From Bacillota bacterium (GTDB lineage Bacteria > Bacillota > DTU030 > DUMP01): DNA of 64,000 nucleotides. A program made the position numbers and the translations under genes. Positions 6,732-12,206 of the stretch are shown piece after piece (positions within the stretch are counted from its first letter, which is position 1; every line of letters starts with the position of its first letter). The DNA lies in contig JAAZKX010000046.1 in NCBI GenBank assembly GCA_012799605.1, positions 32,908 to 96,907 on the forward strand. Direction: 5' to 3'. The notes beneath the pieces are model-generated. The model did not search any database, was not told the DNA's origin, and saw nothing but the letters and a program-made list of their open reading frames with translations.

Positions 6732-6992
6732 ATGAAAACCATCTACGTTGGCAATCTGCCGTGGGCTACCACAGAAGACGAGCTAGCCTCGGTGTTTGCT
6801 GAAAAGACAGGTGTAGAAGTCCAGGCTAGTCGTATCATTACGGATCGCGAGACCGGACGTTCCCGCGGATTTGGGTTCGTCGAGGTTGCCGATAATGATT
6901 TGGAAAAGTGCTTGGAGGCAATGCAAGGTACAGAATTAGACGGTCGCGAACTCGTTATCAATGAGGCTCGCGAGAGGCAAGATCGCTTCTAA
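6732..6992 (+). CDS. RNA-binding protein, RRM family
   Basis: An 86-residue protein consisting of one RNA recognition motif. RNP2 is KTIYVGNL at the N-terminus and RNP1 is RGFGFVEV near residue 50, both with the expected aromatic residues for single-stranded RNA contact. It has its own ~100-nt leader, a Shine-Dalgarno AGGTAGGTGATGG and its own terminator, so it looks like a single-gene unit dropped into the nadD-yqeK interval. Similar small RRM proteins in bacteria are often cold- or stress-responsive, but nothing here shows that directly. Confidence 0.9.
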   Translation: MKTIYVGNLPWATTEDELASVFAEKTGVEVQASRIITDRETGRSRGFGFVEVADNDLEKCLEAMQGTELDGRELVINEARERQDRF

Positions 6993-7065: not shown

Positions 7066-7695
7066 ATGGATGACTACGGGGCGCTAAAATTACAACTTAA
7101 AAACTCCTTGTCCCAACAATTATTTACACATTCTGTCAATACGGCCCGGACAGCAATGGCTTTGGCCCGGCGGTATGAAAGTGATCCCAGCCAGGCTTAT
7201 CTTGCTGGTCTGTTACATGATTGTGCCAAGGAATGCGCTCCTCAATATCTGTTGCAAACAGCAATTGCCTTTGGTATAGTAAGGGATGATAGCGAAAAAA
7301 GGCATCCGGATCTTTTACATGACCGCGTGGGGGCCTTGCTGGCTTGGAAAAAATATGGGATCCAGGACAAAGAAGTTCTTACTGCAATTGCTGTACACAC
7401 CCTTGGCGCTGAAACAATGGGGCTTCTTGATAAAATTGTATATATAGCTGACTTAATTGAGCCGGGCCGCGATTTTCCTGCTGTGGGCGGGCTACGAGCT
7501 TTGGCTCACCAGGATTTGGATCGTGCCGTACTTATAGCTATGGATAATACTATTTCACGTGTTCTGCAACGGGGATTGTTCCTTCATCCCCAGACAGTAC
7601 AGGCACGAAACAGCCTATTGCTGACAGCGACAGCTTCGACATGGGAGAGGGGAGAAAATGGCCCAGACAAGAAAGAGGGTTATTCGGAAGCTTAA
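7066..7695 (+). CDS. yqeK: HD-domain protein YqeK, probable Ap4A hydrolase
   Basis: A 209-residue HD-superfamily phosphohydrolase. The metal-binding residues are visible as FTHSVNTARTA (first His), GLLHDCAKE (HD) and the later AVHTLGAE and YIADLIEPGRDF. YqeK proteins hydrolyse diadenosine tetraphosphate symmetrically. The end overlaps the start of the following LCP gene by 38 bases, implying co-translation; rsfS follows further downstream, as in many Firmicutes. Confidence 0.9.
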   Translation: MDDYGALKLQLKNSLSQQLFTHSVNTARTAMALARRYESDPSQAYLAGLLHDCAKECAPQYLLQTAIAFGIVRDDSEKRHPDLLHDRVGALLAWKKYGIQDKEVLTAIAVHTLGAETMGLLDKIVYIADLIEPGRDFPAVGGLRALAHQDLDRAVLIAMDNTISRVLQRGLFLHPQTVQARNSLLLTATASTWERGENGPDKKEGYSEA

Positions 7696-9337: not shown

Positions 9338-9366
9338 TTGACAACGGTTATTAACTTAGCTATAAT
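9338..9366 (+). promoter_or_regulatory. Consensus sigma-A promoter of the leuS T-box / tRNA-Ala transcript
   Basis: Perfect TTGACA (9338-9343), 17-bp spacer, perfect TATAAT (9361-9366). It would start transcription near 9373, before Stem I of the T-box. It is also the only promoter visible for the nested tRNA-Ala. Confidence 0.9.
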
Positions 9367-9512
9367 GGCGAAGGTGACAAAAGAAATACCTTGGCGATGA
9401 TAAGGAGTAGTAAGTAGCTAGCTTGACCGAAGAGAGCCGGTGGCAGGTGTGAACCGGTGGCAGCGGCTGCCGAACTCGCCTTAGAGCTAAAATGTGAAGA
9501 GGGTAAAGAAGT

Positions 9513-9587
9513 GGGGCTGTGGCGCAGTGGGAGCGCGCTTCCTTGGCATGGAAGAGGTCACGGGTTCAACCCCCGTCAGCTCCACCA
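9513..9587 (+). tRNA. tRNA-Ala (anticodon GGC), nested in the leuS T-box leader
   Basis: A full cloverleaf can be drawn: acceptor GGGGCTG/CAGCTCC, D-arm GCGC/GCGC, anticodon arm CTTCC-TTGGCAT-GGAAG (anticodon GGC, reading Ala GCC/GCU), variable loop AGGTC, T-arm ACGGG-TTCAACC-CCCGT, discriminator A and an encoded CCA. All invariant positions look normal, so it should be a functional tRNA. It lies between Stem I and the antiterminator of the leuS T-box and must be transcribed from the T-box promoter, upstream of the terminator decision, so its synthesis should not depend on tRNA-Leu charging. Confidence 0.96.
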
Positions 9588-9632
9588 AGATTTATGCTTT
9601 ACCAAACAGGGTGGTACCGCGGGTTGGTACAT

Positions 9633-9680
9633 AACCTCTCGTCCCTGGACAAGCTACAGGGCGGGAGGTTCTTTATATTT
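9633..9680 (+). terminator. T-box regulated terminator upstream of leuS
   Basis: Long near-perfect stem: the 5' arm at 9633-9647 pairs with the 3' arm CAGGGCGGGAGGTT at 9657-9670, followed by CTTTATATTTTT. The 5' arm contains the CGTCCCT that alternatively pairs with the T-box AGGG, the usual antiterminator switch. Confidence 0.88.
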
Positions 9681-9716
9681 TTGGCAACATAGTAGAACGC
9701 AAAAGAGGTGGTTATT

Positions 9717-12206
9717 TTGGCTTACAATGATGGGCAATATAATTTTCAGACTGTCGAGCGTAAGTGGCAAAATATCTGGGAGAAAGAGAACACTTACCGG
9801 GTTCCTAACCGGAGCGAAAAACCAAATTATTATGTTCTGGAAATGTTCCCTTATCCTTCCGGGGCATTGCACATGGGGCATATCCGCAACTATGCTATCG
9901 GTGATGTTGTTGCTCGTTTGAAAACTATGAGCGGCTATAATGTCTTACATCCAATGGGCTGGGATGCTTTTGGTCTCCCAGCGGAAAATGCAGCAATTCA
10001 GCGGGGCATACATCCGGTTGAATGGACCCGGGAAAATATTGCTAACATGAGAAGCCAGCAGAAACGCTTGGGATTGAGTTATGATTGGGAGCGCGAAGTA
10101 ACTACCTCTGATCCCGAATACTATAGATGGACCCAGTGGATGTTTCTTTTAATGTATAACAGGGGTTTGGCCTATAAAAAACTAGCTCCGGTGAACTGGT
10201 GTCCTACTTGTCAAACTGTATTAGCCAATGAACAAGTAAGCGAAGGGGGTTGCTGGCGCTGCGGTACCCCGGCGGTTGAGAAGGATTTGGAACAGTGGTT
10301 TTTCCGTACTACCGACTACGCTGACCGGCTGCTGAAGGATCTGGATCTGCTCGATGGCTGGCCGGAGCGGGTTCGCACTATGCAGGAGCATTGGATCGGT
10401 AAGAGCGAGGGGACGGATGTAACCTTTCCCTTGCCAGGGTATGAAAATGGAATTACGGTTTTTACCACCCGGGCCGATACTCTTTACGGGGTAACGTTTA
10501 TGACATTAGCCCCAGAACATCCTTTAGTAACAAAACTGGCTCAAGCCAGCCCTCGTAAACGAGAGATCATGGCTTTCGTCGATAAATGCCGGCAGGAAAG
10601 TAAAATAGAACGTGCTGCTGCGGATATGGAAAAGGAAGGAATGTTCCTTGATTCCTATTGCCTGAATCCATTAAATGGGGAACGGATCCCTATCTGGGTA
10701 GCTAATTATGTTTTGATGGACTATGGTACCGGCGCGGTAATGGGCGTGCCAGCCCATGACCAGCGTGACTTTGAGTTCGCTAGGAAATACGGTCTGGCTA
10801 TCCGGGTGGTAATTACACCACCGGGAACTGAACTTCAGGCTGATGATATGACAGGGGCCTATGTGGAGCCGGGCATTTTGATAAATTCAGGGCCCTATAA
10901 TGGCTTGACCAATTTAGAGGGCCTGAAGCGGATTAATGCGCATCTTAAAGACCAAGGCTTTGGTGTGCCATCTGTTACCTACAGGCTGAAAGACTGGCTT
11001 GTTTCCCGTCAGCGCTATTGGGGGGCGCCGATACCTATTATTTATTGTTCTCATTGCGGAACCGTACCAGTTCCGGAGACCGATTTGCCGGTTCTGCTGC
11101 CGGAACATATTGATTTTGACCCTAGCCTGATGTCGCCTTTGGCCCATGTAGCAGAATTTATCAACACTACCTGCCCGAAATGTTCTCGACCGGCGCAGCG
11201 TGAAACCGATACGATGGACACTTTTATTTGCTCTTCTTGGTATTATTTTCGTTATAGTGATCCTAAAAACGACCGGTTGCCATTTAGCAAGGAGGCAGCG
11301 GCGGCCTGGCTACCGGTGGATCAGTATATCGGTGGCGTCGAGCATGCTGTAATGCACCTGCTGTACTCACGCTTTTTTACCAAAGTGTTGTATGATGCTG
11401 GTTGGGTACAAAAGGTTGAGCCTTTTACTAATCTCCTTACCCAGGGCATGGTAATTAAAGATGGTCATAAAATGTCCAAATCTAAGGGGAATGTAGTCGA
11501 TCCGGAGGAGATAATAGCAAAATACGGGGCTGATACGGCTCGTCTATTTATCTTGTTTGCTTCCCCCCCGGATAAGGATCTGGAGTGGTCGGATCAAGGG
11601 GTGGAGGGATCGTGGCGTTTTCTAAACCGAGTTTGGCGATTGGTAAAAGGGCTGGATGTGTTTGGTGCCATCGATGATGCCCACGATCAGCTCAGCCGAG
11701 CTGATCGTGATCTTCGCCATAAAATTCACCGCACGATCAAGAAGGTAAGCGAGGACGTGGAAGATCGTTTCAGCTTAAATACTGCCATTGCAGCTATTAT
11801 GGAGCTCGTTAACGAAATCTATCGCTATAAGGACAATGTACCCTCGCCTGACCAAAATAAAGCGCTGCTAAAAAATGCGTTGGAAAATGTGCTCCTGCTG
11901 TTAGCTCCATTTGCCCCACATATTACTGCTGAATTATGGCAACAAACAGGGCATACCGAGAATATTCACGACTGTGCCTGGCCCAAATGGGATGAAACTG
12001 CCCTTGAAGTTGAGGAACTAACTATCGTAGTTCAGGTAAATGGCAAAGTCCGTGACCGGCTGGTCGTAGCCGCAGATAGCTCCAGTGAGGAAATAGAGCA
12101 ACTGGCTTTAACAGCTCCTAAGGTACAGCCTTTATTGGATAATAAACAGGTGGACCGGATTATTAGTGTGCCAGGACGGTTGGTGAATATCGTAGTTCGT
12201 CCGTAA
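9717..12206 (+). CDS. leuS: Leucyl-tRNA synthetase
   Basis: An 829-residue class Ia synthetase. TTG at 9717 is preferred because AGAGGTGG lies five bases upstream and it gives AYNDGQYNFQTVERKWQ; a GTG at 9708 overlaps the Shine-Dalgarno. Motifs: HIGH-type MGHIRNYAIGD, the zinc-binding CPTCQTVLANEQV...CWRCG, the CP1 editing domain containing TTRADTLYGVTFM and YGTGAVMGVPAHDQRD, the signature MSKSKGN, and the C-terminal anticodon-binding and leucine-specific region ending in VNGKVRDRL. Regulated by the upstream T-box. Confidence 0.97.
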   Translation: MAYNDGQYNFQTVERKWQNIWEKENTYRVPNRSEKPNYYVLEMFPYPSGALHMGHIRNYAIGDVVARLKTMSGYNVLHPMGWDAFGLPAENAAIQRGIHPVEWTRENIANMRSQQKRLGLSYDWEREVTTSDPEYYRWTQWMFLLMYNRGLAYKKLAPVNWCPTCQTVLANEQVSEGGCWRCGTPAVEKDLEQWFFRTTDYADRLLKDLDLLDGWPERVRTMQEHWIGKSEGTDVTFPLPGYENGITVFTTRADTLYGVTFMTLAPEHPLVTKLAQASPRKREIMAFVDKCRQESKIERAAADMEKEGMFLDSYCLNPLNGERIPIWVANYVLMDYGTGAVMGVPAHDQRDFEFARKYGLAIRVVITPPGTELQADDMTGAYVEPGILINSGPYNGLTNLEGLKRINAHLKDQGFGVPSVTYRLKDWLVSRQRYWGAPIPIIYCSHCGTVPVPETDLPVLLPEHIDFDPSLMSPLAHVAEFINTTCPKCSRPAQRETDTMDTFICSSWYYFRYSDPKNDRLPFSKEAAAAWLPVDQYIGGVEHAVMHLLYSRFFTKVLYDAGWVQKVEPFTNLLTQGMVIKDGHKMSKSKGNVVDPEEIIAKYGADTARLFILFASPPDKDLEWSDQGVEGSWRFLNRVWRLVKGLDVFGAIDDAHDQLSRADRDLRHKIHRTIKKVSEDVEDRFSLNTAIAAIMELVNEIYRYKDNVPSPDQNKALLKNALENVLLLLAPFAPHITAELWQQTGHTENIHDCAWPKWDETALEVEELTIVVQVNGKVRDRLVVAADSSSEEIEQLALTAPKVQPLLDNKQVDRIISVPGRLVNIVVRP

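What the first reader, a model, noticed from the sequence alone, without database searches (positions are those of the whole stretch)
9390..9680. A complete tRNA-Ala gene nested inside the leuS T-box riboswitch
Seen directly: canonical Stem I with a Leu specifier (CTC at 9475-9477), then a full, normal-looking tRNA-Ala(GGC) at 9513-9587, then the T-box sequence, antiterminator and terminator before leuS. One consensus promoter serves everything. Known: T-box leaders sense uncharged tRNA and normally have stems II/III here; RNase P and 3' processing cut out tRNAs. Inference: the tRNA would be made whether or not leuS is read through, and its excision would separate Stem I from the antiterminator, so either processing is slow, or it destroys the switch, or it is part of the regulation. 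I do not know of a described case.
Basis: partly seen in the sequence, partly recalled or inferred. Interest (0 to 1): 0.93.

Follow-up and report, generated by a model that had tools for sequence, protein, structure and literature searches.

The report
Riboswitch with a tRNA gene inside
A switch in the RNA leader of the leucyl-tRNA synthetase gene, predicted to sense uncharged leucine tRNA, contains a complete alanine tRNA gene at one fixed place, an arrangement found in bacteria of several phyla, so a single RNA would likely serve first as a gene switch and then as the source of a needed tRNA.

Summary
A full-length T-box match (RF00230, 9388-9649) encloses a complete tRNA-Ala(GGC) (9513-9587); one consensus promoter lies upstream, an antiterminator/terminator follows, then leuS. 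The tRNA sits at a precise place: the bases flanking it pair (GGUAAAG/CUUUACC) and carry the RRRNG-StemIII-AA signature, so it is predicted to cap Stem III. The flanking stem covaries across genomes.

The arrangement is widespread. A corrected pattern hit 79 of 398 genomes of the phylum. Record titles include Syntrophomonas, Desulfofundulus, Sphaerobacter and Armatimonadota. In the 8 genomes searched of the window's family, one of them complete, it is the only GGC-anticodon match.

Best reading: one transcript decides leuS read-through co-transcriptionally, then tRNA-Ala is likely excised from terminated and read-through RNA alike, so attenuated transcripts would not be waste. Structure and conservation rest on computation; tRNA-Leu sensing, RNase P timing and tRNA release are untested. 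Nine searches of one open-access library found no description, but it lacks key T-box surveys. New variant of a known kind.

The parts
9338..9366 (+). Promoter TTGACA-N17-TATAAT, the only strong one for leader, tRNA and leuS
   Evidence: 12 of 12 consensus positions; TTGAC...TATAAT at nearly fixed distance in 12 of 12 loci examined, window included
9388..9649 (+). T-box leader (RF00230), full-length match that encloses the tRNA
   Evidence: 79.9 bits, E 8e-18, model 1-219
9394..9487 (+). Stem I, with AGAGAG (9431-9436) and Leu specifier CTC (9475-9477)
   Evidence: RF00230 alignment; CTC at the expected distance in 90 of 94 nested loci with enough upstream sequence, rule met in 194 of 1880 shuffles
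9497..9508 (+). RRRNG signature AAGAG (9497-9501) and 5' strand of Stem III GGTAAAG (9502-9508)
   Evidence: pairs with 9597-9603; consensus fold and covariation
9513..9587 (+). Complete tRNA-Ala(GGC), CCA encoded, G3:U70 present, predicted tip of Stem III
   Evidence: ARAGORN, RF00005 66.1 bits, compensatory changes in its stems among relatives
9597..9605 (+). 3' strand of Stem III CTTTACC (9597-9603) and the AA of the Stem III signature
9608..9646 (+). T-box sequence AGGGTGGTACCGCGG with bulge TGGT (9612-9615), and the predicted antiterminator AGGG...CCCT
   Evidence: RF00230 alignment; discriminator A of tRNA-Leu(GAG) fits the U of UGGU
9633..9682 (+). Intrinsic terminator hairpin and T-rich tract
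   Evidence: MFE folds; present in the consensus fold
9708..12206 (+). leuS, leucyl-tRNA synthetase (in-frame TTG at 9717 may be the true start)
   Evidence: ORF of 832 aa; its homologues lie downstream of the same leader in relatives

Best explanation
The leuS leader is a full-length T-box match that holds a complete tRNA-Ala(GGC) gene, predicted to cap its Stem III, so that one transcript would likely act first as a leucine-tRNA-sensing switch and afterwards as the precursor of the only GGC-anticodon tRNA found in this assembly. Shown by sequence and computation: full-length T-box match, Leu specifier CTC, intact tRNA, complementary flanks of the tRNA that fit the base of Stem III, single strong upstream promoter, terminator downstream of the tRNA, conservation. 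Inferred: (1) the cloverleaf folds as it emerges and holds Stem III and the purine string in place beside the antiterminator; (2) uncharged tRNA-Leu(GAG) bound at Stem I and the UGGU bulge decides read-through while RNA polymerase is still near; (3) only then RNase P and 3' processing cut the tRNA out, from terminated and read-through RNAs alike, so that tRNA-Ala supply does not depend on the leucine decision and the attenuated transcript is not waste; (4) the strong promoter serves tRNA output, and termination keeps leuS low.
For: T-box and tRNA models both match, one inside the other; the T-box match is full length in 31 of 31 other nested loci given to cmscan. Among 119 stretches from an isotype-blind scan, 100 hold tRNA-Ala(GGC) and 95 of these have leuS downstream. 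Stem III base on 18 aligned leaders: 7 pairs, 6 with changes on both sides, 95.8% of cells paired; whole Stem III plus tRNA structure 99.0% paired against 88.5% in shuffles and 43-50% in slid controls, 0 of 500 shuffles as high. In 98 nested loci, 91 have a run of 4 or more pairs after a G and before an A, 76 of those with RRRNG and 75 with AA; runs of 5 or more in 72 of 95 distinct loci against a mean of 34.4 and at most 46 in 200 permutations of the 3' flanks. Pattern hit in 79 of 398 genomes of the phylum, the reversed control pattern in 2. The nested gene is the only GGC-anticodon match in all 8 genomes searched of the family, one complete, and the only GGC among 38 tRNAs of this assembly. 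tRNA-Leu(GAG), which reads CUC, is present with discriminator A. leuS T-boxes without the tRNA exist in the same phylum: 7 of 21 plain leuS loci have a T-box sequence, with a plain hairpin at the Stem III place in those read by eye.
Against: No expression data. The window scores 79.9, below Rfam's gathering score. The single-sequence fold of the whole leader is only 1.7 sd better than shuffles (6 of 100 as good) and does not show a canonical Stem I; a fragment ending after the terminator folds without the Stem III base, while the antiterminator-length fragment keeps it. 7 of 98 loci show no Stem III run of 4 or more; of the other 91, 15 lack RRRNG and 16 lack AA by the script's rule; own flanks rank in the best quarter of swaps in only 61 of 95. 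G008, G009 and G011 have a second Ala(GGC) gene, so the nested copy is not always the sole source. Slow RNase P action through G(-2)U(-1) pairing cannot be claimed as special to nested genes: GT precedes 54 of 98 nested tRNAs and 9 of 17 distinct non-nested ones. The assembly is 92.5% complete and no Ala(UGC) gene was found in it, so a missed GGC copy is possible here, though not in complete G003.
Confidence: 0.78

Rival explanations
1. Processing is part of the regulation: RNase P cuts at the tRNA 5' end while the switch is still being read, so leader cleavage and antitermination compete, and RNase P activity or tRNA maturation feeds into leuS expression.
For: The tRNA 5' end lies between Stem I and the antiterminator. 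Published kinetics with E. coli RNase P show that pairing of the leader with RCCA slows cleavage (PMC9433436, passages), so the rate can be tuned.
Against: G(-2)U(-1) is as common before non-nested Ala(GGC) genes. Termination is a one-time decision close to the polymerase; nothing in the sequence shows that cleavage is fast enough to matter.
Confidence: 0.13
2. The tRNA is only a structural cap of Stem III; it is not processed into a working tRNA.
For: It keeps the Stem III base and signature.
Against: It is the only GGC-anticodon match in 8 of 8 genomes searched of the family, including complete G003; G3:U70 in 18 of 18 and compensatory changes in D, anticodon and T stems; CCA encoded in 17 of 18 aligned leaders (in the 98 loci CCA was required by the search pattern, so that count is no evidence).
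Confidence: 0.04
3. The switch is dead: a tRNA gene landed in an old T-box and now merely borrows its promoter.
For: Score under the gathering threshold.
Against: Stem I, CTC specifier, T-box sequence and covarying Stem III are kept over several phyla; 9 of 31 loci pass the gathering score.
Confidence: 0.04
4. The nested tRNA is a second sensor that couples alanine status to leuS, for instance by its own CCA end competing for the UGGU bulge.
For: Its discriminator A and CCA match UGGU as well as those of tRNA-Leu.
Against: In the nascent RNA its 3' end is not free, and charging needs prior excision; leuS T-boxes without it exist in the same phylum.
Confidence: 0.03

Closest known systems
Transcriptional T-box riboswitch (RF00230), plain leuS members such as L252, L259, L263, L264, L266-L268
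   Same: Leu specifier, T-box sequence, leuS downstream; in L263, L264 and L266 also the Stem III marks, by eye
   Different: Stem III ends in a small loop there and in a whole tRNA gene here
glyQ-type T-boxes without Stem II (PMC7583486, passages)
   Same: In the window's family Stem I is followed almost directly by Stem III
   Different: No tRNA in glyQ Stem III (recalled); the more distant nested leaders (L023, L026, L027, L030, L031, L035) have a longer stretch between Stem I and the tRNA that looks like stems II and IIA/B (by eye)
tRNA genes co-transcribed ahead of mRNAs, e.g. E. coli tufB and metY-nusA operons (recalled, no call)
   Same: tRNA excised from an mRNA leader
   Different: There the tRNA lies beside, not inside, a switch
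RNase P cleavage of riboswitches such as btuB, and processing of the B. subtilis thrS T-box leader (both recalled, no call)
   Same: Nuclease cleavage inside a regulatory leader
   Different: No tRNA is released

Membership tests
T-box riboswitch | Covariance match to RF00230 | tested here: met
   full length, E 8e-18, but 79.9 bits against gathering 93
T-box riboswitch | Specifier codon in Stem I that matches the downstream gene | tested here: met
   CTC (Leu) before leuS; CTC in 90 of 94 nested loci
T-box riboswitch | T-box sequence with UGGN matching the discriminator of the cognate tRNA | tested here: met
   UGGU and tRNA-Leu(GAG) with A73
T-box riboswitch | 5'-RRRNG-StemIII-AA-3' (definition: PMC7778990 passages, PMC7583486 passages) | tested here: met
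   AAGAG-GGUAAAG...CUUUACC-AA in the window; 76 and 75 of the 91 loci with a stem, of 98
T-box riboswitch | Competing antiterminator and terminator | tested here: met
   terminator in the MFE and consensus folds; antiterminator strands in the RF00230 alignment
T-box riboswitch | Uncharged tRNA-Leu promotes read-through | not testable with these tools
   needs in vitro transcription
tRNA-Ala | Cloverleaf with GGC anticodon and G3:U70 | tested here: met
   GU pair in 18 of 18
tRNA-Ala | Processed and aminoacylated | not testable with these tools
   inferred from being the only GGC tRNA found

The most novel reading that the evidence does not exclude
A bifunctional RNA class: riboswitches whose terminated, normally discarded transcripts are the cell's main source of a needed tRNA, with the pre-tRNA built in as Stem III of the aminoacylation sensor and its excision by RNase P resetting the system and freeing the bound tRNA-Leu. 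The arrangement may predate the split of the leuS lineages of Bacillota, Chloroflexota/Thermomicrobiota and Armatimonadota.
Probability: 0.4. Interest if true: 0.93.

Novelty: new variant of a known kind. Interest (0 to 1): 0.87.

Why it matters
Attenuation is usually pictured as throwing away the terminated RNA; here that RNA would carry a tRNA that the cell needs. It gives a natural test of how fast RNase P acts relative to a riboswitch decision, suggests that the sensing domain of a T-box tolerates a 75-base folded RNA in Stem III, and ties the supply of one tRNA to the promoter of a synthetase for another amino acid. The insert may also explain why some leuS T-boxes score below the usual detection limit.

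Tried and rejected
Assembly artefact: rejected, since the nesting recurs in 18 other genomes of the 41 examined and in records of cultured isolates. Other isotypes nested in T-boxes: the four candidates (Ser L107, Gln L115, Pro L136, Thr L183) have no T-box match, so chance. Of the 15 stretches without a called tRNA, L084 and L113 look like Ala(GGC) leaders before leuS, cut or scrambled at the locus start; the other 13 I take as chance as to the tRNA, of which only L088 was put to Rfam (no match). The five Ala loci without leuS (L121, L122, L142, L146, L187) hold 63-1139 bases downstream, too little to tell.

One search used a faulty pattern that demanded A after CCA (28 of 398 genomes, some of them plain chance); it is superseded (79 of 398). 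In one search one of the 80 printed matches (G139:C52) does not end like an Ala acceptor; the isotypes of the rest were not called one by one. That pattern still misses leaders without encoded CCA such as G020. Two early regex counts of the specifier (55 of 94; 79 of 94 with a Leu-like codon) were too strict or too loose and are replaced, whose rule was written after seeing the sequences (90 of 94 CTC, 2 other, 2 none).

Leader pairing G(-2)U(-1) as a special brake on RNase P: rejected as a distinguishing feature. The LeuS tree was a quick search over 60 nested rows (the window and those 59 loci whose LeuS frame exceeded 700 aa from near its start, of 95 with leuS) and 21 plain rows; it needs at least 10 changes of label, 6 if only well supported branches count, so it neither shows one origin nor excludes it; two long branches meet.

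The library searched lacks the two comparative T-box papers that I tried by id, so a remark there could have escaped me. Nine paper searches. In the one held T-box survey, PMC2494555, 'tRNA gene', 'Stem III' and 'tRNA-Ala' do not occur (passages).

Full report
What is there. The region reads, in order: promoter TTGACA-17-TATAAT (9338-9366), Stem I with the Leu specifier CTC (9475-9477), the signature AAGAG, GGTAAAG, a complete tRNA-Ala(GGC) (9513-9587), CTTTACC, AA, the T-box sequence AGGGTGGTACCGCGG, antiterminator, terminator, leuS. RF00230 matches over its full length with the tRNA read mostly as an insertion (79.9 bits, E 8e-18; gathering score 93). The tRNA model scores 66.1 bits.

Where the tRNA sits. 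The bases on either side of the tRNA are complementary: GGUAAAG/CUUUACC. Published structural work gives 5'-RRRNG-StemIII-AA-3' as the mark of Stem III, an indispensable part of the aminoacylation sensor whose stem and loop are variable (PMC7778990 passages; PMC7583486 passages). The window has exactly AAGAG-GGUAAAG...CUUUACC-AA, so the tRNA is predicted to be the tip of Stem III. RNAalifold on 18 leaders, the window's included, finds this by itself: seven Stem III pairs, then the cloverleaf with one extra U(-1):A73 pair, then the terminator. Counting pairs on that alignment, 6 of 7 Stem III pairs have changes on both sides; the Stem III plus tRNA structure is 99.0% paired against 88.5% in shuffles and at most 49.8% when slid. 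In a series of MFE folds of the window's leader, grown in steps of 15 bases, the cloverleaf is absent up to 9570 and present from 9585 on, when its 3' acceptor strand is included. Single-sequence folds are less clear than the alignment: the whole leader keeps 5 Stem III pairs but no canonical Stem I, and of two fragments the antiterminator-length one keeps Stem III and the terminator-length one does not.

How general it is. Among the window's genome and 40 relatives, 19 show the nesting: the 8 searched of the same family, the 5 of the next family (in G009 the contig end cuts the tRNA) and G020, G022, G027, G036, G038, G039. Of these 100 hold tRNA-Ala(GGC), 95 with leuS downstream; 4 hold another tRNA and no T-box; 15 have no called tRNA. 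Record titles include Syntrophomonas wolfei subsp. methylbutyratica, S. palmitatica, Thermosyntropha lipolytica, Desulfofundulus, Desulfovirgula, Orenia, Pelotomaculum, Symbiobacterium, Sphaerobacter, Thermomicrobiales, other Chloroflexota, Armatimonadota, Coprothermobacterota and Caldisericota; many are metagenome bins, so single phylum labels may be wrong. A corrected pattern hits 79 of 398 genomes drawn from the phylum, 52 of 266 genera; the reversed control pattern hits 2. cmscan finds the full-length T-box match in 17 of 17 and 14 of 14 nested loci given to it, 5 and 4 of them over the gathering score. CTC stands at the specifier distance in 90 of 94 loci; the rule is met in 194 of 1880 shuffles.

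Both functions look selected. For the switch: in 98 nested loci 91 have a Stem III run of at least 4 pairs, 76 of these with RRRNG and 75 with AA, and own flanks pair better than swapped ones (5 or more pairs in 72 of 95 against at most 46 in 200 permutations; duplex energy -10.6 against -6.65 kcal/mol, own flanks in the best quarter in 61 of 95). In three Armatimonadota loci (L106, L126, L138) leuS lies about 1 kb downstream, and in L126 the gene between is an aminotransferase of class IV, the family of branched-chain aminotransferases (family function recalled), which would fit leucine control. For the tRNA: it is the only GGC-anticodon match in the 8 genomes of the family, including the complete single-contig G003, and in single-contig G020 and G027; the window's assembly has 38 tRNAs, Ala only as GGC (nested) and CGC. 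In 40 long frames of the window GCC and GCT, the codons read by GGC, make up 1060 of 1621 Ala codons.

Mechanism. Every transcript from the strong promoter contains the tRNA before it meets the terminator. I infer that uncharged tRNA-Leu(GAG), present in the genome with discriminator A, bound at CUC and UGGU, allows read-through; otherwise transcription stops. Either RNA would then be processed to tRNA-Ala. Because the choice is made once, near the polymerase, later excision need not harm it. E. coli RNase P is slowed when two leader bases pair with RCCA (PMC9433436, passages), and GT precedes many nested tRNAs (54 of 98), but as many non-nested ones in proportion (9 of 17), so I do not rest timing on it. 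Whether Stem III itself delays RNase P is open.

Evolution. 7 of 21 plain leuS loci in other families of the phylum have a T-box sequence upstream (regex); in L263, L264 and L266 a short hairpin stands, by eye, between the same kind of marks, so the tRNA seems to have taken the place of the Stem III loop. On a quick LeuS tree nested leaders are strongly clustered but spread (10 changes; 0 of 500 shuffles as low): an old arrangement with repeated loss, or transfer with leuS, or both.

Against. Searches that found no description: (listings seen; passages only in PMC7778990, PMC2494555, PMC7583486 and PMC9433436).

Verdict. A real, conserved variant of the T-box riboswitch in which a working-looking tRNA gene is predicted to form the tip of Stem III.

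Noticed in passing
L196:73-526, L198:209-661, L199:1-189: In three genomes of the neighbouring family (G008, G011, G009) a second tRNA-Ala(GGC) gene lies 10-12 bases 3' of the RNase P RNA gene, i.e. a tRNA directly behind the ribozyme that matures it.
   Followed up: partly
L105 (pattern match at 7385-7431): The Caldisericota nested leader seems to have a very short Stem I that lacks the usual distal part, seen when the specifier rule failed although GAACTC is there; RF00230 still matches it.
   Followed up: no
L145:476-2155, also L081, L097, L135, L160, L191: In Pelotomaculum/Desulfofundulus-like genomes an AMP-binding ligase gene of about 560 codons stands between the nested T-box leader and leuS (Pfam run on L145 only, the others judged by like sequence and length).
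   Followed up: partly
L100:396-986, also L095, L112, L161: In some Chloroflexota loci a GNAT acetyltransferase-like ORF lies between the nested leader and leuS (Pfam run on L100 only).
   Followed up: partly
window 6732-6992: A free-standing 86-aa RRM protein (PF00076) a few genes upstream, in a nadD/yqeK/rsfS/leuS neighbourhood; no link to the leader was tested (gene names nadD and yqeK recalled by eye).
   Followed up: no
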